A stretch of DNA of 64,000 nucleotides from Dacryopinax spathularia. Its lineage: Eukaryota > Basidiomycota > Dacrymycetes > Dacrymycetales > Dacrymycetaceae. The stretch spans positions 1,426,001 through 1,490,000 of the forward strand of contig JBBPFI010000003.1 of NCBI GenBank assembly GCA_037974965.1, written 5' to 3'. A program made the translations under genes and the position numbers. How positions within the stretch are numbered: the first letter of the stretch is position 1; every line of letters starts with the position of its first letter. The notes under the pieces are model-generated. The model did no database searches. It was not told the origin of the DNA and was given only the letters and a program-made list of their open reading frames with translations. Positions 53,494 to 63,940 of this stretch are shown piece after piece.

Positions 53494-55690
53494 ATGTCCG
53501 ATACGACCCCCGCCGTCGCCGGTGCTGCTGCCGATGGCGCGCCGGACCAACACCCTCCGACGTTGATCGCGCCTGTACCCGCACCACCAGCACCGAAGCA
53601 GGAGTGGGGGAGAGGTACGTCCCGCGATCCCTTTCCGCTCTTCTTCAACTTCTGTTCTCCGTTTCCCTATCGCACTTGCTTCTCGCCGCTCTGATTGCAC
53701 GTGCTGACCCTTGATTGTCGCAACAGTGCTACTATGTGGAGGCACGAACTGGTATGCATGCCTTCTACATCGCATATATGCGTGTCAGATGGTTAACACA
53801 CTGTCAGGTTAACGCTAGGGAAGAAGGGATTACCTGCGGATCCGCAACTGTACGTCAATACTATCGTTCACTTGCTCTGCATTCACTAACGCCTATGCCA
53901 GTCCCGACCTACCGTCTCCACATACCCTCCGATCCCTTTCGAACGTCAAAGCGACCGGTGTATACACCTCCCACTCGTCATGTCATACTATAGTTCTTGA
54001 TGGTATGCGCATATATGCTACTCTCCTTCCCTCTACGCGTGCTAAGGCCTTTTCTCTAGTGGCAGGCGCAGCCTACCTCTTCGGACGCAACTCCTCTTCC
54101 TGCCTCGGCGTACCGAGCACCGCCAACCCCTCCATCTCACACAACACGCCTCGCCGTCTTCTCCCAACCGATATCGGCGCTGCAGCAGGGACGAAGTTCA
54201 TACATGCTGCTTGTGGGAGGAACCATTCTGTTCTTGTAGGAGACGATGGGAACGTCTGGACGGCGGGGGCGAACGCGCATGGGCAGTGTGGACATCCTGC
54301 TGGTGGGGAGGTGGGGAGCTTTAGGATGATCCAGGGTGGGTGGGCGAGGGGGAAGCTGAGAGAAAAGGCAGTCTTCGCTTGTACGTGCCCATCCGTCGAA
54401 AAAGTAAGATATATGCGTGCTCATGGGATGGTGGACAGCGGCGGGTGTGACGTTTACGCTGGTGTTGACGGAAAATGGACGAGTATATGCGTTCGGAAGT
54501 GGCGAGCATGGGCAGCTGGGCAATGGTAGGACTGGGGAGCGGATCGCCCAGGCGAACAAGACGATCTACGATATCGAGGATGAGCCGAGTACGTCCTGCA
54601 CCAACCGTTGCATCCTCAGAGCTCCCAATCAATACCTTTTGTAGTCCTTGTCAAAGGTCCCTTGGAAGGCAAGAAAGTCGTCCAGATCGCCTGTGGGCAG
54701 CAACACGCCGTAGCACTAACGATGGAGGGCCTCGTCTTCGTATGGGGATTCAACGGCTACTGCCGGCTCGGCCTGGGACACCAGAAAGACGTGCTCATAC
54801 CCACACTCGTACCTCAGTATGCGGGCCAGAACCAAGTCACGCGAGGCGCATTCGTCGCTGCTGGCCCGACATCGACCATCGTCATTGATCGGCAGCGGAT
54901 GCTGCAAATGGCGGGGAAGTTCAAGACAAGCGGAGCGGGCAGTGTGGGGCAGCCGTTTTCTACTTTCCGATATTTCCCAGAGATTCAGTGCGTGCATCTC
55001 TCGCCAGGTCTGTCTTGAAATTATCTGACCGCAGCCACAGAGGGTGCAAAGTCCTGATCGCTGCAGCCGGCGGTGTCACCCACTTCGCCACAGCAGACGA
55101 CGAAGAGTCCGGTGGGATAATGACGATCGCCTGGGGCCAGAACGCGATCAACTCCGAACTAGGCCTGGGCGAAGGCCAACCGAAGTCCACTCCCAAGCCA
55201 GTACGGGTCGAGACGCTCAACGGAATCGACGTGATCGGCCTTGGCGCCGGTCAGAACACGTCTTTCTTCCTCGCACGGCCGAATGACGCGCTCTCCGACC
55301 TGCCCCGGTTCCCCGAGAGCGTGCCCGCACCCAATCTGTGCGTGGTGTGTAATGAAGACCGCGAGGCGCAGGGGGAAGAAGCGCTCGAGTGCGAGAAATG
55401 TGATACGCCCTATCACTTAGGATGCCTCGATCCGCCGCTGAGTGAGATTCCCGCGGGACAGTGGTTCTGCCCTAAATGCGAGAAGGAGTTTGAGGAGGCT
55501 CCGCCGCCTAAGAAGGCCGCAGTGAAGAAGCAGGAAGAAGAAGAGGGGCCGAAGAAGCGCGGTAGGCCGGCGAAGAGGAAGGCGGAGAGTGATGAAGATG
55601 AAGGCGAGGCGAAGAAGGCTAAAGGTCAGCTCTTTTACCTTTCTAGTCCTCAATCTTTGCTGACCTGTGCGGACAGTGGCCAAGAAATGA
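53494..55690 (+). CDS. RCC2-like beta-propeller with C-terminal PHD finger
   Basis: Nine exons: 53494-53614, 53727-53751, 53808-53849, 53902-54002, 54066-54380, 54439-54588, 54645-54987, 55041-55624, 55677-55690; 564 residues. After a Pro/Ala leader, the sequence VLLCGGTNW split over two tiny exons (25 and 42 nt) matches the start of RCC2 (TD-60). RCC1-type repeats follow: ACGRNHSVLVGDDGNVWTAG, TFTLVLTENGRVYAFGSGEH, ACGQQHAVALTMEGLVFVWG and a degenerate last blade ending LGAGQNTSFFLA. A C4HC3 PHD finger then runs from CVVCNEDREAQG through CEKCDTPYHLGC to WFCPKC, which would read histone tails, and a basic KKRGRPAKRK AT-hook-like tail ends the protein. Human RCC2 has no PHD finger. Three introns carry the CGCATATATGCG-type word. 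Confidence 0.88.
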
Positions 55691-56062
55691 CCAGGCGAAG
55701 CTGTATGCTAAGGGTTGGTGTTGTGCATAGCTCCGAGGCGTTTTTATTAAGTGGGGTTGGGGTGTTTTCTCTTCTTCACTCGTCGTTGTATTACTGTACC
55801 TTATCCCCGCTCGTAATTGTTTATTGTTGCCTTGCGCAGGATCGCTTACCTTCTGATTCTAATTATACATCCACAAGGACAGTTGTGCAAGTGTTGGAGG
55901 GCGCGTGATCCGTGTGCGAAAGACATCATCATTCCTAAATAATGCCAGAACAAGCAGGTATGTACAAGCCACAGCCCGTATCCCACCAGCGGCAAATCCG
56001 CCTCCCACCACCAGCAGTCCAAAGAACTGATGAACCGAATTTTATGACCCCCATGCCCTCCA
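55691..56062. other. Convergent intergenic, no gene seen
   Basis: 372 bp between the stops of the RCC2-like gene and ERG9; T-rich in its first half. Confidence 0.5.
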
Positions 56063-57610
56063 TTACATCAGGTCAAACCACCAAATAACCGCAAACGCGA
56101 TCCCCGCCGTGACCGCAAACATCAGAATGGTCGTCCCCAGCATAGCCGCAATCAGCCACCACGGCGCCTGGTCCTCCTGTTGCTGCTGGAGCTTTGCCGG
56201 ATCCAGCCCTACGCGGCGGGCCATCTCAAGCTTTTGCTTCTCGTTCTCCCTCACCATCCTCCTTTGGTAGATCAGGGCGCGGGGGTCGCCGCCGGGTGCG
56301 GTGGACCCGATTGAGGGCGGGGAGTCCTTGGATTGGGGCGCGATGAGGGATATGAACGACGGATAGTGGTGCTCTGCCCACTGCTCGATCTTCCCGCACG
56401 CCACGGACAGCTTGAGATAGTTGGGATCCTGCGGCACGGCCTTGGCATGGATGCGTCTCGCATAGTCCCTGAACACATATGCGACATCGCGAGGGTTCGT
56501 GGCCTTGCCCATCAGCTGGACGGTGACCCCGCGCCGGATCTTGACGTTCTTGTGCAGCACGTCGCGGTTCATGAAGCACAGCGCCAAGGTGGCAATGGCC
56601 ATTACTTGCGGTATAGCGACGAAATTGAACACGCTCTGGTTCTTGAGCATCGTGAGGTAGTCGAGCGTGTCGACGGAATGGCGCAGCGCATCGAGGATCA
56701 TGCCGCTCAGCGCGAAGAGCGCTTTTTGCTCGCGTGTGGGGAGGGTAAGCTCTTTGATGTCGTCAAAGCCGTATTTGCCCCAGATCTCTTTGGGCCAGAA
56801 GAACCGGCCTTCGTCCACGTCCTCTCGGAAATCACGGGTGATGTTGGTTTTCTGGAGGAAAAGCCCGCAGGAGTTGGAGAGCTCAAGTTGGTCCGCGATC
56901 CATTCCTGTTCTTTGCCAGCAGCGGCGAACAGCCTGCTCAAGCCTTCTCCGACAAGACCGGCAACGTAGTGGCAGTACAGGTCGTACTCCTCGATCGTCT
57001 CGACATAGAACGACCGGCCCGGCGAGACCCGATCGCAGAAATCGGCCATGCCCTTCCCGGTCTTGCGCGTGATATCGCGGATGATGTCGAAGCAGGGTTT
57101 GGGCAACAACGCGAGCTCGGAGATGATCACGTCAAAGTGCACGCATACGTCTCGGTCTTTCTCGTTGGGCCCGTTGCCCGTGAAGACCCAGCCGGGCTGG
57201 TCGAGCTTCTTGTAGAAGTCGCGTAGGAGGGGTTGTTTCACTTCGACGGGGATGGTCATGTCGTCCTCGATTGTGTCGAGCGCACGCAGCACCAGATAAA
57301 ACAGGCAGATCTACAGCCACCCCAAAAACGGAAATCAGCAAACACCAATCAGACCCGCGGCTACGGGAAAAAGACGCACGATCCTAGCCAAATCCCCTTG
57401 CAGGTTCTTGATGACCACGGCAAAGCTCCGGCTCGTCATGTCCAAATACCCCCAGCACTGGCGCATCGTCTCCCTATCCCAGCCAGTGCTCTCCTTCTCC
57501 TTCGGGTCGGCCAGATCACGGTTGTCCGTCCAGAGCCAGTATTGCGCGAGGGCGCGGAGCTCGTTAGGGTGAGTGAAGAGGAGGTAGACGAGTTCGGTCG
57601 CTTTGGGCAT
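56063..57610 (-). CDS. ERG9: Squalene synthase (farnesyl-diphosphate farnesyltransferase)
   Basis: Two exons on the minus strand: 57380-57610 and 56063-57310; 492 residues. The enzyme joins two farnesyl diphosphates to squalene, the first committed step of ergosterol synthesis, at the ER membrane. The two Mg-binding aspartate motifs are DTIEDD (about 89-94) and DFREDVDE (about 237-244). Other family blocks are RSFAVVIKNL, GNGPNEKDRDVCVHFDVI, YVAGLVGEGLSRLF and LQKTNITRDF. The C-terminus has one membrane anchor (WWLIAAMLGTTILMFAVTAG). Start: MPKATELVYLLFTHPNELRA; the frame is open 38 codons further upstream, but that stretch is low-complexity and not family-like. Confidence 0.96.
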
Positions 57611-58113
57611 CTTGGCTGTTATTTTTCCTTGGGTTGTGAGGGCAGTAAGGGAGGGACAGGGAGGAGGGAGGAGAAGAGGGGCAGCTCGAGGAGGAGGTGG
57701 CCGGGCAGAGAGAGAGACAGGCACGGGGGTCTTGCAAGTTGTGCAGTGCGGAGAAAAGGACCCTTTGAGGCGTCGGTTGTGTGGAGGAGGAACGAGGAAG
57801 GAAAGTGAAGGTCAGCCGAGAAACACAGCCACACCACCCACCGGAGCCGCTATGAAAAGGGACCGTTAAAGCGAGATCAAGTTGGGCCAGCACCGAGTGT
57901 ACGTTGCACGATATATAACCCCCCGACAGAACTGCGATAAGGCACCGTACATTCGGCTCGGTACGCCATCGGTCCCGCCTCCCTCCATCTGCTGTTAATC
58001 CAAGAACTTGCAGATAGCCCATCACCCAACCCCCGACCCTCACAAATTTCCCTTCCAAGCATCAAGCAGTAATCAGGGTCCTCACCCACTTCAATCCCAC
58101 CGCACCAAAAATC
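57611..58113. promoter_or_regulatory. Divergent promoter region, ERG9 and small ORF
   Basis: 503 bp, purine-rich on the plus strand near ERG9. No specific sterol-regulatory site recognised. Confidence 0.4.
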
Positions 58114-58308: not shown

Positions 58309-59055
58309 CACAGCGCCATCGATGGTGTTGTTGGTGATTTGGTCGGACAGCTGGAGATCGGTATGCGTCGGGTTGGACAAGCTGATTGGAAGGAGGGAGA
58401 GTGGTTGTCTCATCGGCGCGATCCGGCGCTCGTCCACCGAGCTGATGCTGCCGGGTTTGCAAGTGGGAGGACCGAACGCGTGCTTGATCACATCGACGAG
58501 CCTGGTTCATCAATTGAAACCTCAAGATGACCGCAAATCCATCGCTCGATAAAGAACGACCCGGTACGGCAGATGTATGCGCCTCGGTCCCGCGACGACG
58601 CGAACAATCTCGGTGGTTGATAAGGGCAGGGACACGCTTCCAGGCTTCTATTACCCTACCTAAGTCTCGGTATTTCTCTGTCATATCTGTACATCATATA
58701 ATAGCTACATTGTCATTGTCTCCTAATATAACAATCATCACACATCTCCCAGAGCCCGACGATGTTGGCCGGAGAAACCGCGCCGCATGGTCTGCACAAC
58801 AGTAGTTACAGGATCCGTGCAGTTCTGTCCGGGTCCAATCTGTCCGAGCGCGCGGACACCAAGTAACCGGCACTGCCACCAAAAGGGTTCTGTGCGCGTA
58901 AGCCATAAGCCCATGTGTAATCAAAAATTCAGGCATTAGTGACTGGACCTAAATTTGACTGGCGATCCGTTCCCTTATCCCCGCTCCGCTTCGACATCCC
59001 GCTCCGCTTTGACATCCCGCTCATTCTCTACCTCGACTGTCGACATTGTACAACA
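58309..59055. other. Intergenic, 5' flank of the KDZ gene
   Basis: No gene seen. A 17-bp tandem motif (CGCTCCGCTTCGACATC and CGCTCCGCTTTGACATC) occurs at about 58983-59020. Confidence 0.45.
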
Positions 59056-61224
59056 ATGCTGTTGTCCGAACTGTACAAACGCTTGAAGCATCATCGGTCT
59101 TCGCTAGGCAATTTGTCTGTTGATCAGGCACTGGAGTTCTTCGCTGCTGCTCGTCGTCTTCAAAACCGCATCTCTTGGCAACAAAACACTAGTCTTGAAG
59201 CACTATCTGGCCCGCCAGCGGATCTTCCGAATTCTGTTGTGTCTTTTCTAGCCGGCAGTCTGCATATCAGCCATGGCCAGGTCCTAGCTCTCTGGACTGC
59301 TTTGCGGGAGGCGATCTGGATCCCGGGCAAAGATGTTACAGCAATGTCGCCGGCTCTAATCGATGACTTCCGTATCTTCGCTGAACATGCCCCCAGTTAC
59401 GAACTCGGTAAGACCTCACGCGCCCCATTCTCCGCTCACATCCTTGACTCCGCTTAGCCGCAGAAGAGTTCTACCCGCCGACTCGTAGCTGCACATACCC
59501 AAATTGCCCTTTCTATGATGCTCAAGGACGTCGCGCTCGGCTCTCGGACCCACGGAGATACAAAGCATCGCTTTATACGCTTGGTCGAGGCGCCTTCCCT
59601 GTTATCGTCACATCTTTACGTTGCCTATTCTGTCAGTCAACGTATCACTTGAATTACGCCTGTCAATCTGGCGCGGATGGTCAGATATATCGCCTTTATT
59701 ACACTGGCGTCCCTGCCATCATTCAAGCCGAGAAGCATTTCCTATTCGAAGATAAGCTGTGTGACCTCTTTAGAGCACTTACCGTGTTCTCTCAGTGCGT
59801 GGTCTCGTCTTACAACTGTTTCTCTTCCAATCGCTAACTAAACTTCGCACTGCAGCTCCTCTATGAACTCAAATGCGCTCGTGTATAATACGACCCTGGC
59901 CCGGCCGCAGTATCCTACAAAGGGCAGCTATCAAGTCCCGCTACTCCGGAGCGAGTATGTTGGGGATCTCTTCGATCTCTACTCGCTACTTCTGCATCAT
60001 GCTGAGCATGGCAGCCAGCTCCGGCTTCTGCACTTCCCTGGACTGACCCAAACGGAACGGCTCGCGAGCGCCATGCTCGAGCGGAATGTCTTCATTGCCC
60101 AAAGGGGCCAAGAGCAGTGGGCTCATGCATGTGATACATGTCGGAAATTCTTCATGAGAGATGGCCAAGAATGTGAGCCCTTTTGCCGCTCCTTCGGTGC
60201 TCGCCTCACCTATCAGTGCAGACATGCTTTCATGCGCCGTTACTGACGGTGTATCGATCAACCGGCCATGTTGCGCTCAACATAATTGCTGTAACCCGCT
60301 CGTGACCAACCGCGCCCGCCACTGTCACGAACATGCGTACTTGGAATCCATCTGCAGCGTTGAAGGCTGCGATCAGCCGGCCAGGCACTCGCATCAAACT
60401 TGCACTATTCCCGAGCATGCAGCAATAGAAACGAAGTTTCGTGCGGAGCACCAATCGTTCCATCTCCTCAGAAAGCGGCTCGATCGCACGCACGCCTATC
60501 TGCGAGGCGATACACTTCTTCAAGGCGATGATATCGAAGGAGCCACGGATGTAGAAGGGGAATTGGATGGAGAAGTTGAATTGGATGTGCCATCTACCGC
60601 CCAGCAAACCAAGAGAATCAAGGCACGATTCACACGCAGACGCACTCACAATGAACAACTCGTAGTTCGGCCTTGCGGTATTATTCTGGCACGAGGTACT
60701 TTCTATGGAGGGGAAACGTTGGAGTCTGTTGCGGTGCGCGCGATCTCCCTCTGGCTGATAATCCATTTTTACTTGACATACAGGCTTTTCTTCGAACGGT
60801 CTTTCCCACGCCAGCGTCCCTGCCCGACGTCTTGTTTTACGACAGCAATTGTCAACTACACAAATACGTCAATGATCGCCCGCCCCTTCGAGATTTCTTC
60901 AAAGATACCGCTCTCGTCGTCGACGTGTTCCATTTCAAGAGTAAGCACACGGAGAAGGACTGGTATTGCGGATATCATTGCAACCCTACTGCCTACCCGG
61001 AGCTGGTTGACGAGAAGAACAAGCGATGGACATTCAATTCCTCTAAATGTGAGCAAGTTAATGCGTGGCTCAGGAACTTCTACCCCATAGTTCGAGACAT
61101 GCTGCCCGTCAGATACGAATTCTTTCTGGATGAAGTCATCAAGGTCCACAATCGCTTTCTTGTGGATGAATTGCGCGCTCGCGGTCAGTCCCCCCACACA
61201 ATTCCCTCTGTTAGTCTCCGATAG
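59056..61224 (+). CDS. KDZ-type DNA transposase gene with CxC5/CxC6-like cysteine clusters
   Basis: Five exons: 59056-59407, 59458-59794, 59856-60172, 60222-60733, 60784-61224; 652 residues, no interruption. A helical N-terminus (MLLSELYKRLKHHRSSLGNL) precedes a first cysteine cluster (SCTYPNCPFYD, LRCLFCQSTYHLNYAC, HACDTCRKFF). A second cluster follows (CCAQHNCCN, CHEH, CSVEGCDQPARHSHQTC). The C-terminal part has DVLFYDSNCQLHKYV, VDVFHFKSKHTEKD, YHCNP and NSSKCEQVNAWL, patterns of fungal proteins of the Kyakuja-Dileera-Zisupton (KDZ) transposase superfamily; the aspartates in DVLFYD and VDVFHFK are candidate catalytic residues. Introns are 49-61 nt like host genes. I could not define the ends of a transposon. 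It could be active, or domesticated. Confidence 0.8.
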
Positions 61225-61897
61225 ATTTGTTTGTACTTCGTGTATCCTTCCTGTCCATTTAAGTACTTGTGGAATCCAAATATCTGCCTGGCTGGTTACT
61301 GGTTGTGATTGCAAGACACTGCTTCTGAAACAACCCACGCACCTCTATGAATTCGCACCCCGCGACTCAGCCTGCACATACAGAAACAATTCCGCTGTCT
61401 CTTGCGGTGCTAGCCAGACCCAATAAGTGATATGCGGACGGGCGTCTCAGCCTACACATACCGCTTGAGCGTTGGTGTTCAATGTCGATCACAGAGGCGG
61501 ATAACGTTGCTAGTCGCATACCCTGCATGTCAGCTTGCACATACAGGAGCGATTCGGCTGTTGATAACAAGGCCGGAAGCGGGACAGCTCGACCGCTACC
61601 GTACATCGCAGCCTGCACATACAGGAGCAGGTGGACTGTTCAGCGTTGAAGATGCGGCATTTACGTTGAAGGAATGATATTAAAGGATAAGTATGATAGA
61701 AAGCAACATAATACGCAGAAGATGGACATGGGAGATTGCATAGTGGATGTAACAAGTGGGAATGAGGGAAGCGCTAGACCAATAAATGAGTGTGAGTGCG
61801 GGTTGGAATCCCAACCAGGCAAAGTAGCGTAACGACTGTGACGTTCAATCAAAGCAGAGCGAGATGTACCTTATGTACGTCGAGAAATGATCAGTAT
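61225..61897. other. Convergent intergenic region between KDZ gene and cysteine-cluster gene
   Basis: 673 bp with no gene. It contains the array of about 80-bp repeats described separately. Confidence 0.5.
61368..61622. repeat. Four degenerate ~80-bp tandem repeats
   Basis: The word CAGCCTGCACATAC or a near variant begins at 61368, 61448, 61531 and 61609 (spacings 80, 83, 78). The last two copies extend to ACAGGAGC. Sequence between the cores is diverged. Confidence 0.7.
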
Positions 61898-63940
61898 CTA
61901 CAGTCTCTGCCTCTTCGAGCTGAGCTTCAAGCTGTCCTTTGTCTTACCTCGACCGTTCACCCCCATCTTGACATCCATCTTGCGCGTTGCATTGCACGCC
62001 ATTCCGATCCTTCTTGCCTCCTTTGTTGCCTCCTTCCGAAACGCTCGCCAGCTCCTGGATGGCTCCTCGTCGAAGACAAGTTTCGTACTCATGGGGGCTT
62101 GATCATAGAACTTCACCTGGTCATACCACGTCGAGCGAGGGACAGCGTACTTGACCACGCGCAATATAGCTGGATCAACGTCGACCCGCTCGACCTTGTT
62201 CAAGTGGTGGACCTTCCGAATCGCTAGCAGCAGCACTTCTGAGTACGATCGCTCGCCTGGCCACGCGCATTCAGTGTTCTCTGGCTTTGGCGGAGTGAAC
62301 GAGATGATGGAGCCAGATGACGAACGAGAACGGGCCGACTTGGGTATTTCCGCGAAGATCTCCTCAATCGATGGGAGGCTGGAATCCGAGCCGCTCGAGG
62401 GCACTCTCTTCCTCTTCTGCTTCTCGTCCTGCCGATCTTGCATTGGCACACGCTGATCAGTCATGACCCTCCTCTCATCCTGGCCCGCTCCCTTTAACAT
62501 CCCACTCCCCTTCGACATGCCTTTATCCTTCGACAACCCACTCCCCTTCCGCATACCGATGTTCTCCTCAAGTGCATCAAGTCGAGTTAATGAAGTTGTG
62601 TTGACCTTCAACACTGGGTTGCGATTTGGCGTTTTCTTCGGCGAGAGATGTTGACTCGCTGCACGGCGGGGTGCATCACGGTAGAAAGGAGGATGCACCA
62701 CCTCCGCCACTTCATGTAGTACGTGGGGGGCATCTGAACTGACACCTGGTAGACGGCAAAGGAGCCGCTCGTTCCTTTCGATACTCCGCAGGACGTCCCA
62801 TCCGTAGTATTCCCACTGACCGGTCGCTGCATTGAATAGTTCCAATGCGGTGTAGTCTTCCTGGAGAGACGATCTGAGCAATCTCAGGACGTGACCTGGC
62901 CATTCATTTATGCGCGTCAACAACCCATCGGTGCTCTTCTTGGCTTTGAGCCCAGGGAAGGGGAACGACCCATCCTAAAAGTTCAAGTCAAGCTATGTGA
63001 TATAGGCGAGGACCAAATCCCCTTACGATTGTAAGCACCACCAGCGTAAAGTGGAGAGCTACTTCTTCCTCGAGTTGCCGTGCTTCCTGCGCCTGCTTCT
63101 CCATAAGATGTCTTTCTTTGCGGGCCTCATCCCGCAGCGCCGAATAATCTTCATCAACAACGCGACCCAGCGGTCGTGGAAGTCGAGGAGTAGACGGACC
63201 AAAGAAGGCCCGAGCAGGCTGAGAGGCCGGCGTTCGATCACCAGCCTCTTTCTGAGTACTCCCGTTCCGCAGAGGTAAGTCGGGGATTGCATCCACATCG
63301 ATAATCTCTTGGGGATGGGTGCTTTCAGCTTTGAAGTACGGTGCTTTCTCGGGCGCCCACAAAGGGTGGGCGCTACACTCGTATGGTTGGCGAGCTTGGC
63401 GAATCTGGCAACAGGTCCGACATAACTGGTGTCGGCACTGCATGTTCCTATGCTTTGGACAGCCAGCGCATGGCACCTTCACCTTGCGAGGAAGCAGGGA
63501 AGGTCTCGGAGGAGACGCGTCCAGCTTCCACTCAACGTCAGGTGGATCGACCGGCGGGCTCGATCGGTCGGAAGGCTTGAAAGTAGGCGGCCACCTGTTA
63601 AGCTCATGCTCCACAATGTCGATAGCCGGCTTCTTCAGCTTGTTTGTGACGAAGTGGAATGAGGCGTTGAAGTGCTGGACCTCCTCGCACTGAAAGCCTT
63701 GTCAGTTCAGTAATGGGCTGAGCAGACCCCACGCACCCTCGTGAACACCCTGTATAGATTTTCAGGATGTTCCCCCCTGCGATCGTATGATACACGGGGG
63801 ATACCGGGCAACGAACACTTCCCACATCTCAACGCCGGCAGCGTGTCCAACTTCCACCACTCCATCACTATGCGTACATCTTCAGGCCATTCCTTGTCCG
63901 GTATCGCAGCGAATTCTTGACGACGACGTTGCTGAGACAT
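61898..63940 (-). CDS. Cysteine-cluster protein of unknown function next to the KDZ gene
   Basis: Three exons on the minus strand: 63737-63940, 63027-63689, 61898-62974; 647 residues. Exon 1 has a CGKC pair (LRCGKCSLPGIP) after EWPEDVRIVMEWW. Exon 2 carries a compact cluster VPCAGCPKHRNMQCRHQLC continuing CCQIRQ and CSAH, likely zinc-binding, then a predicted coiled coil (EARKERHLMEKQAQEARQLE). Exon 3 holds a repetitive KGSG-rich stretch (MRKGSGLSKDKGMSKGSG), a Ser-rich region and a basic C-terminus ending SSKRQRL, which looks like a nuclear localisation signal. I recognise no named family. It converges on the KDZ gene across 673 bp, so it may be part of the same mobile unit or a host gene. 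Confidence 0.7.

What the first reader, a model, noticed from the sequence alone, without database searches (positions are those of the whole stretch)
59056..63940. KDZ transposase gene paired tail-to-tail with an uncharacterised cysteine-cluster gene
An uninterrupted KDZ-type gene and a convergent gene with its own dense cysteine cluster and nuclear-type tail are separated only by a 673-bp repeat array. KDZ elements in basidiomycetes are known to travel with other genes. If this pair is a unit, the second gene would be a new accessory, possibly a DNA- or chromatin-targeting factor. Pairing is inference from position and shared cysteine-rich character.
Basis: partly seen in the sequence, partly recalled or inferred. 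Interest (0 to 1): 0.72.

Follow-up and report, generated by a model that had tools for sequence, protein, structure and literature searches.

The report
Five-gene jumping element in a fungus
The two neighbouring genes are part of one large mobile DNA element that carries about five genes and its own sets of short repeated DNA motifs, which may help it escape silencing by the host.

Summary
A CxC5/CxC6 (KDZ-associated) gene at 59056-61224 (+) faces a second gene at 63940-61898 (-) across a 673-bp spacer with repeats. In the window's own 29.2-Mb genome, 25 of 25 detected loci of the second gene lie within 17.3 kb of a CxC5/CxC6 locus; 25 of 28 CxC5/CxC6 loci have the second gene nearby. Two copies give a complete 17.6-kb element with 8-bp target duplications and imperfect terminal inverted repeats. 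It carries three more genes; no TET/JBP match over cut-off was found in the genome.

The second protein holds a cysteine cluster spaced like the plant SHI/SRS RING-like finger (Pfam DUF702, below cut-off). An 18-bp repeat recurs in the leader of gene 1 and the linker of gene 2 in all eight elements examined. The window's element has 40 sites of a motif absent from seven others, four of them read only in part. Young copies differ by excess C/T changes before G, as methylation would leave.

Best reading: a KDZ-like multigene transposon whose second gene is a DNA-binding accessory acting on the element's repeats, possibly an anti-silencing factor working like plant VANC. Mobility is shown; that function is inferred.

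The parts
58792..58799 (.). Candidate 8-bp target duplication CTGCACAA (left copy); its partner beyond the far end was not seen
   Evidence: Position only: eight bases before the terminus; the right flank was never retrieved (genome tool not answering from then on)
58800..58819 (+). Element terminus on the transposase side (CAGTAGTTACAGGATCCGTG)
   Evidence: Resembles the CAGTAnnTCCAGsTTCCGTG terminus of ten other copies, each with different 12-bp flanks; the two C5/C17 copies have a more divergent end
58989..59006 (+). 18-bp repeat R18 in the leader of gene 1
   Evidence: whose C3 coordinates are one too high; a site 178-328 bp from the terminus in 8 of 8 elements at up to 5 mismatches
59056..61224 (+). 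Gene 1: CxC5/CxC6 protein, 650 aa, putative KDZ-class transposase, five exons
   Evidence: Gene model; Pfam; 28 loci in genome; purifying selection on exon 5
60540..60575 (-). R18 repeats inside the linker of gene 1
61366..61624 (+). Four copies of the family motif CTCAGCCTGCACATACAG (0-2 mismatches) in the 673-bp spacer
61898..63940 (-). Gene 2: 647-aa accessory protein, three exons, basic C-terminal tail
   Evidence: 25 loci in genome; exon-3 dN/dS 0.13-0.26 in the unsaturated between-family pairs printed
62492..62545 (+). R18 repeats inside the linker of gene 2
63366..63470 (-). SHI/DUF702-like cysteine cluster of gene 2, residues 142-176 (C-x2-C-x7-C-x4-C-x2-CC-x10-C-x2-H)
   Evidence: Pfam DUF702 residues 140-176, E 0.13 here, best E 0.0021 in a paralogue; pattern found in all 18 gene-2 loci fetched, 15 distinct sequences

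Best explanation
The pair lies in a KDZ-like cut-and-paste DNA transposon of about 17.6 kb with five genes. Gene 1 (CxC5/CxC6) is most likely the transposase; it recognises the imperfect terminal repeats and leaves 8-bp duplications. Gene 2 is an accessory DNA-binding protein (SHI/DUF702-like finger, coiled coil, C-terminal helical domain) that acts on short repeats spread through the element, most likely to keep it active against host methylation, in the way plant VANC proteins do. Shown: the unit, the ends and duplications of two copies, gene order, co-divergence, element-specific repeats, excess C/T changes before G. Inferred: catalysis by gene 1, DNA binding by gene 2, which repeat it binds, and anti-silencing.
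For: Linkage 25 of 25 loci. Complete copies C12:171061-188629 (TSD ACAACACA) and C4:1089972-1107533 (TSD CCCAGAGT). Gene C: 15 of 16 matched loci near gene-1 loci; gene D: 7 of 10. Co-divergence. Purifying selection on the exons compared; gene-2 exon 3 changes faster than gene-1 exon 5. R18: 26 and 16 sites in two elements against 0.2 and 0.1 in shuffles, 1 in 58.8 kb of flanking DNA; leader and gene-2 linker sites in 8 of 8 elements. Own motif: 40 sites here, 0 in seven other elements, 1 in the flank. Finger spacing as in SHI/SRS (passages of PMC10576376). C/T differences before G 3.9-14.6 times those before other bases in four comparisons. VANC targets are family-specific, tandemly repeated and mainly non-coding (abstract and passages of PMC5735166).
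Against: No binding, expression or methylation data. The DUF702 match is below Pfam's cut-off. The structure model of gene 1's core failed (mean pLDDT 41), and hmmscan listed no KDZ transposase domain. Fold search of gene 2 found nothing significant. ACTCTAC, the published STY1 site, is not enriched. Of four family motifs tested, two are private; the C17 motif is also found 7, 5 and 3 times in C12, C4 and C3, and the C14 motif 4 times in C5. Eight of 40 own-motif sites fall in coding stretches (7 in gene D's open frame, 1 at the end of gene C). The C12/C4 pair shows only a 1.6-fold excess before G. Gene C was matched near only 14 of 28 gene-1 loci and D near 7. Genes C, D or gene 1 itself could be the repeat-binding protein.
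Confidence: 0.5

Rival explanations
1. Gene 2 is part of the transposition machinery: it binds the repeats to pair the ends or to assist gene 1, without any role in silencing.
Against: Most R18 and family-motif sites lie deep inside the element. The family motif differs between families while the terminus is recognisable in ten copies. The structural rows are below the level the tool calls informative.
Confidence: 0.3
2. Gene 2 is a passenger that hitch-hikes with no function for the element.
For: No function tested; three gene-1 loci lack a detected gene 2.
Against: Present near 25 of 28 gene-1 loci, which I group into about 17 lineages, co-diverging with gene 1 and under purifying selection.
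Confidence: 0.08
3. The copies are segmental duplications or passengers of another element (for example Copia, as proposed for CxC5/CxC6 copies in Pleurotus ostreatus), not a transposon of their own.
For: PMC7641404 (passages and one results section) links such an insert to Copia elements and saw no KDZ transposase near it. No search for LTRs was made here.
Against: Two copies have 8-bp direct repeats exactly at both ends and unrelated flanks; the transposase-side terminus recurs with different flanks in other copies.
Confidence: 0.04
4. The family-specific repeats are neutral microsatellite-like expansions with no bound protein.
For: Tandem arrays expand by slippage; the units in gene D's open frame are multiples of three (45 and 102 bp). 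A 16-bp repeat upstream of gene 2 was not element-specific at 4 mismatches (8 sites in the flank).
Against: Own-motif sites occur in five separate arrays, each in one orientation, and R18 recurs at two homologous places in eight elements.
Confidence: 0.2

Closest known systems
KDZ superfamily DNA transposons (Kyakuja, Dileera, Zisupton) of fungi
   Same: CxC cysteine cluster on the transposase-like gene, 8-bp target duplication as reported for Dileera and Zisupton, large size
   Different: No KDZ domain listed by Pfam; 17.6 kb against 9-11 kb in Cryptococcus; four extra genes, no TET/JBP match over cut-off; imperfect short terminal repeats instead of 139-241 bp TIRs; the two Kyakuja families described have 7-bp duplications and no TIRs (PMC12730594, PMC12810828)
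CxC5/CxC6 'insert' in MSH4 of sporeless Pleurotus ostreatus (PMC7641404)
   Same: Same Pfam pair in a 660-739 aa protein, multicopy, repeat cluster inside the insert
   Different: 6.8 kb, described with one ORF and linked to Copia; 'inverted repeat' and 'target site' do not occur in its main text and no partner gene is named in what I read
VANC/VANDAL anti-silencing system of Arabidopsis (PMC5735166)
   Same: Transposon-encoded fast-evolving accessory protein; family-specific short motifs in same-orientation tandem arrays through the element
   Different: Different superfamily, kingdom and protein; binding and demethylation are shown there, not here
SHI/SRS (STYLISH) plant transcription factors, DUF702
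   Same: Cysteine spacing CX2CX7CX4CX2C2 of the RING-like finger in the window copy
   Different: Last loop 10 against 6 residues, no Pfam match in the rest of the protein, DUF702 score below cut-off, STY1 site not enriched

Membership tests
KDZ superfamily | KDZ transposase catalytic domain | tested here: inconclusive
   hmmscan of gene 1 listed CxC5, CxC6 and two sub-threshold rows, no KDZ domain. TDG / YDNNC / KCEQ motifs are conserved between copies, but calling them a DDE triad is my inference; the AlphaFold model is unusable. The own-genome search with the recalled accession PF18758 did not complete
KDZ superfamily | CxC cysteine cluster on the transposase protein | tested here: met
   CxC5 93.9 bits, CxC6 74.3 bits, cut-offs 26.9 and 27.5
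KDZ superfamily (Zisupton/Dileera type) | 8-bp target site duplication | tested here: met
   2 of 2 copies closed at both ends; not tested for the window's own copy
KDZ superfamily | Terminal inverted repeats | tested here: met
   Imperfect: 15 of 20 terminal bases match in the C12 copy
Kyakuja | 7-bp duplication, CA..TG ends, no TIR | tested here: not met
   8-bp duplications, far end starts GAGG, imperfect TIR; definition from two families in PMC12730594
TET+ KDZ transposons | TET/JBP gene inside the element | tested here: not met
   Four sub-cut-off exon matches in the genome, none within 80 kb of the listed gene-1 loci. The search rang in 0 of 14 control genomes, so its power on fungal TET genes is unproved
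VANC-type anti-silencing (works like) | Family-specific motif arrays confined to the element | tested here: met
   Met for two of four motifs: own motif 40 sites against 0 in seven other elements and 1 in 58.8 kb of flank; C12 motif 25/24 against at most 1. Two other motifs are partly shared, and four of the eight elements were read only for 6-7 kb
VANC-type anti-silencing (works like) | Encoded protein binds the motif and removes methylation | not testable with these tools
   Needs EMSA, ChIP-seq and methylome data
SHI/SRS (DUF702) | RING-like finger CX2CX7CX4CX2C2X6C | tested here: inconclusive
   Window copy has the same spacing up to CC, then a longer last loop; Pfam 19.1 bits at best against cut-off 20.6
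SHI/SRS (DUF702) | Use of ACTCTAC sites | tested here: not met
   0-2 sites per element in four elements against 0.8-2.0 expected

The most novel reading that the evidence does not exclude
Basidiomycete KDZ-like transposons have evolved, independently of plant VANDALs, a sequence-specific anti-silencing system: gene 2 (with gene D or C) reads a motif that each family has spread through its own spacers, so that each family protects only itself from cytosine methylation. This would be a second, TET-independent counter-defence in KDZ-type elements.
Probability: 0.33. Interest if true: 0.87.

Novelty: new variant of a known kind. Interest (0 to 1): 0.7.

Why it matters
CxC5/CxC6 proteins are abundant in Pleurotus ostreatus (44 to nearly 60 copies, PMC7641404), and that paper found no transposon of their own for them. 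Here they sit in elements of which two are closed by ends and target duplications, with a conserved set of partner genes, so the element can be annotated and tested. If gene 2 reads the family's motif, fungal genomes offer many natural protein-motif pairs for studying how transposons escape silencing, and possibly new sequence-specific demethylation tools. The listings seen here (several capped at 10-30 papers) showed no title on such a five-gene element; gene 2 has no name to search for, and the 2014 PNAS paper that defined KDZ (Iyer et al.) is not held and could describe parts of it.

Tried and rejected

Copia passenger, TET+ element and Kyakuja membership were considered and set aside. STY1-site enrichment was tested and failed. 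A 16-bp repeat upstream of gene 2 was not element-specific and was dropped.

First readings corrected: I first took the C12/C4 shared block to end 1.2 kb upstream of gene 2; more flank showed a repeat array and a longer element. I first thought all family-motif sites non-coding; one search puts 7 of 40 inside gene D's open frame and 1 at the end of gene C. The C3 coordinates printed are one too high (found). The 5-mismatch scan has no shuffle control; one search has one at 4 mismatches. The first CpG count had a biased denominator; one search replaces it. No host baseline was measured. One search printed only pairs with pN below 0.42.
Full report
What is there. Gene 1 (59056-61224, +) gives a 650-aa protein after removal of four introns with CxC5 and CxC6, the cysteine clusters Pfam links to KDZ transposases. 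Gene 2 (63940-61898, -) gives 647 aa from three exons and has no Pfam family over cut-off. The spacer is 673 bp with four copies of an 18-bp motif about 80 bp apart.

Linkage. Gene 2 matched 52 stretches (25 loci) and gene 1 matched 99 (28 loci) in the 29.2-Mb genome; the tool calls such counts lower bounds. All 25 gene-2 loci lie within 17.3 kb of a gene-1 locus, 11 within 1 kb; 17 are convergent, 8 on one strand. At most 4% of the genome lies within 20 kb of a gene-1 locus, so the nominal binomial P is about 1e-35. Several loci are recent copies of each other; I count about 17 lineages, partly from equal scores where no DNA was fetched. Three gene-1 loci (C10:636946, C4:1749427, C8:912016) have no detected gene 2 within 20 kb. 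Protein distances of the two genes correlate (Mantel r 0.84, P 1e-4 for 10 non-redundant copies; r 0.66, P 2e-4 without the outlier). The exons compared are under purifying selection: between the C14 copy at 492 kb and the C14/C6/C15 trio dN/dS is 0.03 for gene-1 exon 5 and 0.24 for gene-2 exon 3; most other gene-1 pairs and many gene-2 pairs are saturated at synonymous sites.

Ends. Two copies, 96-98% identical in their three main aligned blocks, are bounded exactly at C12:171061-188629 (17,569 bp) and C4:1089972-1107533 (17,562 bp), flanked by ACAACACA and CCCAGAGT twice each. The ends are imperfect inverted repeats, 15 of 20 bases alike. A terminus like the transposase-side end recurs in the window at 58800 (with more differences); among the copies compared, ten others share it with unrelated flanks and two more have a more divergent end. 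A genome scan for that 20-mer with up to three mismatches gave 23 hits against 3 for the reversed control; by position 12 are ends of gene-1 loci, 10 are elsewhere and 1 is ambiguous. The window's far end lies beyond C3:1502500 and could not be read, so its duplication is untested.

Further genes. Gene C (about 870 aa, cysteine-rich near its end) matched 16 loci, 15 within about 12 kb of a gene-1 locus by subtraction of coordinates, serving 14 of the 28 gene-1 loci; the exception is a weak match at C7:290442. Gene D matched 10 loci, 7 in elements and 3 weak ones elsewhere. In all 7 elements with a D match the order and strands are gene 1, gene 2, D, C as in the window's element: gene 1 (+), gene 2 (-), D (-), C (+). 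Gene E, with a hydrophobic stretch seen by eye, was found in the C12 copy and, by DNA match, in the window's element. None of C, D, E has a Pfam match. In the C14/C6/C15 trio the inner block is inverted, so gene C faces gene 1. Four weak TET/JBP matches in the genome are not in these elements.

Repeats. R18 (CTTCTACATCCCACTCTC, up to 4 mismatches) occurs 26 times in the C12 element and 16 in the window's, against 0.2 and 0.1 in shuffles and 1 in 58.8 kb of flanking DNA. At up to 5 mismatches, in eight elements (C12 and C4 nearly identical; four read for only 6-7 kb), it recurs in the gene-1 leader and the gene-2 linker in 8 of 8, about 1 kb from the end in 7 of 8 and near 1.75 kb in 5 of 8; in the four elements read far enough (C12, C4, C3, C17) there is also an array of 12-23 sites between genes 2 and D. 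Family motifs: CTCAGCCTGCACATACAG 40 times in the window's element and 0 in seven others; CCTGTGAATCCACCACTATC 25 and 24 times in C12 and C4 and at most once elsewhere; the C17 motif (11 there) is also seen 7, 5 and 3 times in C12, C4 and C3, and the C14 motif (12 there) 4 times in C5. Of the 40 own sites 32 lie in spacers, 7 in the open frame of gene D, where they encode N-terminal peptide repeats if translated, and 1 at the end of gene C.

Gene 2 protein. All 18 gene-2 loci fetched (of 25; 15 distinct sequences) hold C-x2/3-C-x6/7-C-x4-C-x2-CC-...-C-x2-H. The window copy has the plant SRS spacing CX2CX7CX4CX2C2 and then 10 instead of 6 residues to the next C (passages of PMC10576376). Pfam DUF702 reaches E 0.0021 in one copy and 0.13 in the window's. 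AlphaFold gives confident models only for this cluster, a coiled coil and a C-terminal helical domain; no significant structural relative was found.

Host pressure. In four comparisons of young copies (three pairs, one in two segments), C/T differences before G are 3.9 to 14.6 times as frequent as before other bases (66 of 5793 against 27 of 15626 summed); the more diverged C12/C4 pair shows 1.6. This is what methylation at CpG followed by deamination leaves; methylation was not measured and no host baseline was taken.

Interpretation. The pair belongs to a self-contained KDZ-like transposon. That gene 1 is the transposase is likely but not proved: catalytic-looking motifs are conserved, yet no KDZ domain was listed and the model failed. 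The family-specific motif arrays, the fast-changing accessory protein and the signs of methylation resemble the VANC system, in which a transposon protein binds family-specific tandem motifs and induces methylation loss (abstract and passages of PMC5735166). This is a likeness in working, not a membership claim. An end-binding or transposition-helper role is the main rival.

Literature. PMC12730594 (abstract, introduction, two of three parts of the results, first part of the discussion) describes TET-bearing KDZ elements with 7- or 8-bp duplications. PMC12810828 and PMC12510652 (passages) describe Cryptococcus KDZ elements of about 9-11 kb, in the first with 139-241 bp TIRs. PMC7641404 (passages and one results section) describes a CxC5/CxC6 insert linked to Copia. 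PMC8290104 and PMC7473861 (passages) list KDZ elements without gene content. None of what I read mentions a gene like gene 2.

Noticed in passing
L039 (C12 copy) and L041 (C17 copy), gene 1: Lesions: the C12 gene-1 frame holds an in-frame TGA, and the C17 copy has K where its 99.7% identical C1 partner has the conserved E of KCEQ.
   Followed up: no
C4:596196, C5:29935, C3:2007709, C17:792445, C7:69924, C7:1373748, C8:953935, C9:344050, C14:778454, C16:544019: Ten matches to the element's 20-bp terminus away from any listed gene-1 locus (where the control gave 3); they may be non-autonomous derivatives, remnants or in part chance.
   Followed up: no
C14:104-120 kb, C6:1055-1071 kb, C15:67-83 kb: Three near-identical copies in which the inner block (gene 2 to gene C) is inverted relative to the other families.
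   Followed up: partly
C14:120844-122966 and C14:124007-126209: Two gene-C-like copies in tandem between two gene-1 loci.
   Followed up: no
C3:1495389-1496762 and C12:176.8-178.2 kb (gene D): The N-terminus of gene D is a tandem peptide repeat encoded by each family's own DNA motif, while its last 190 residues are conserved.
   Followed up: partly
upstream of gene 2, e.g. C3:1490.2-1490.4 kb: A degenerate 16-bp tandem repeat recurs upstream of gene 2 in many copies, but its consensus is not element-specific at 4 mismatches.
   Followed up: partly
window 56063-57724 and 54608-55908: Host neighbours: a squalene/phytoene synthase gene and an RCC1-repeat/PHD-finger gene.
   Followed up: no
C8:998044, C13:1016521, C8:499943, C8:761543: Four sub-threshold TET/JBP exon matches; whether they sit in another transposon family was not examined.
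   Followed up: no
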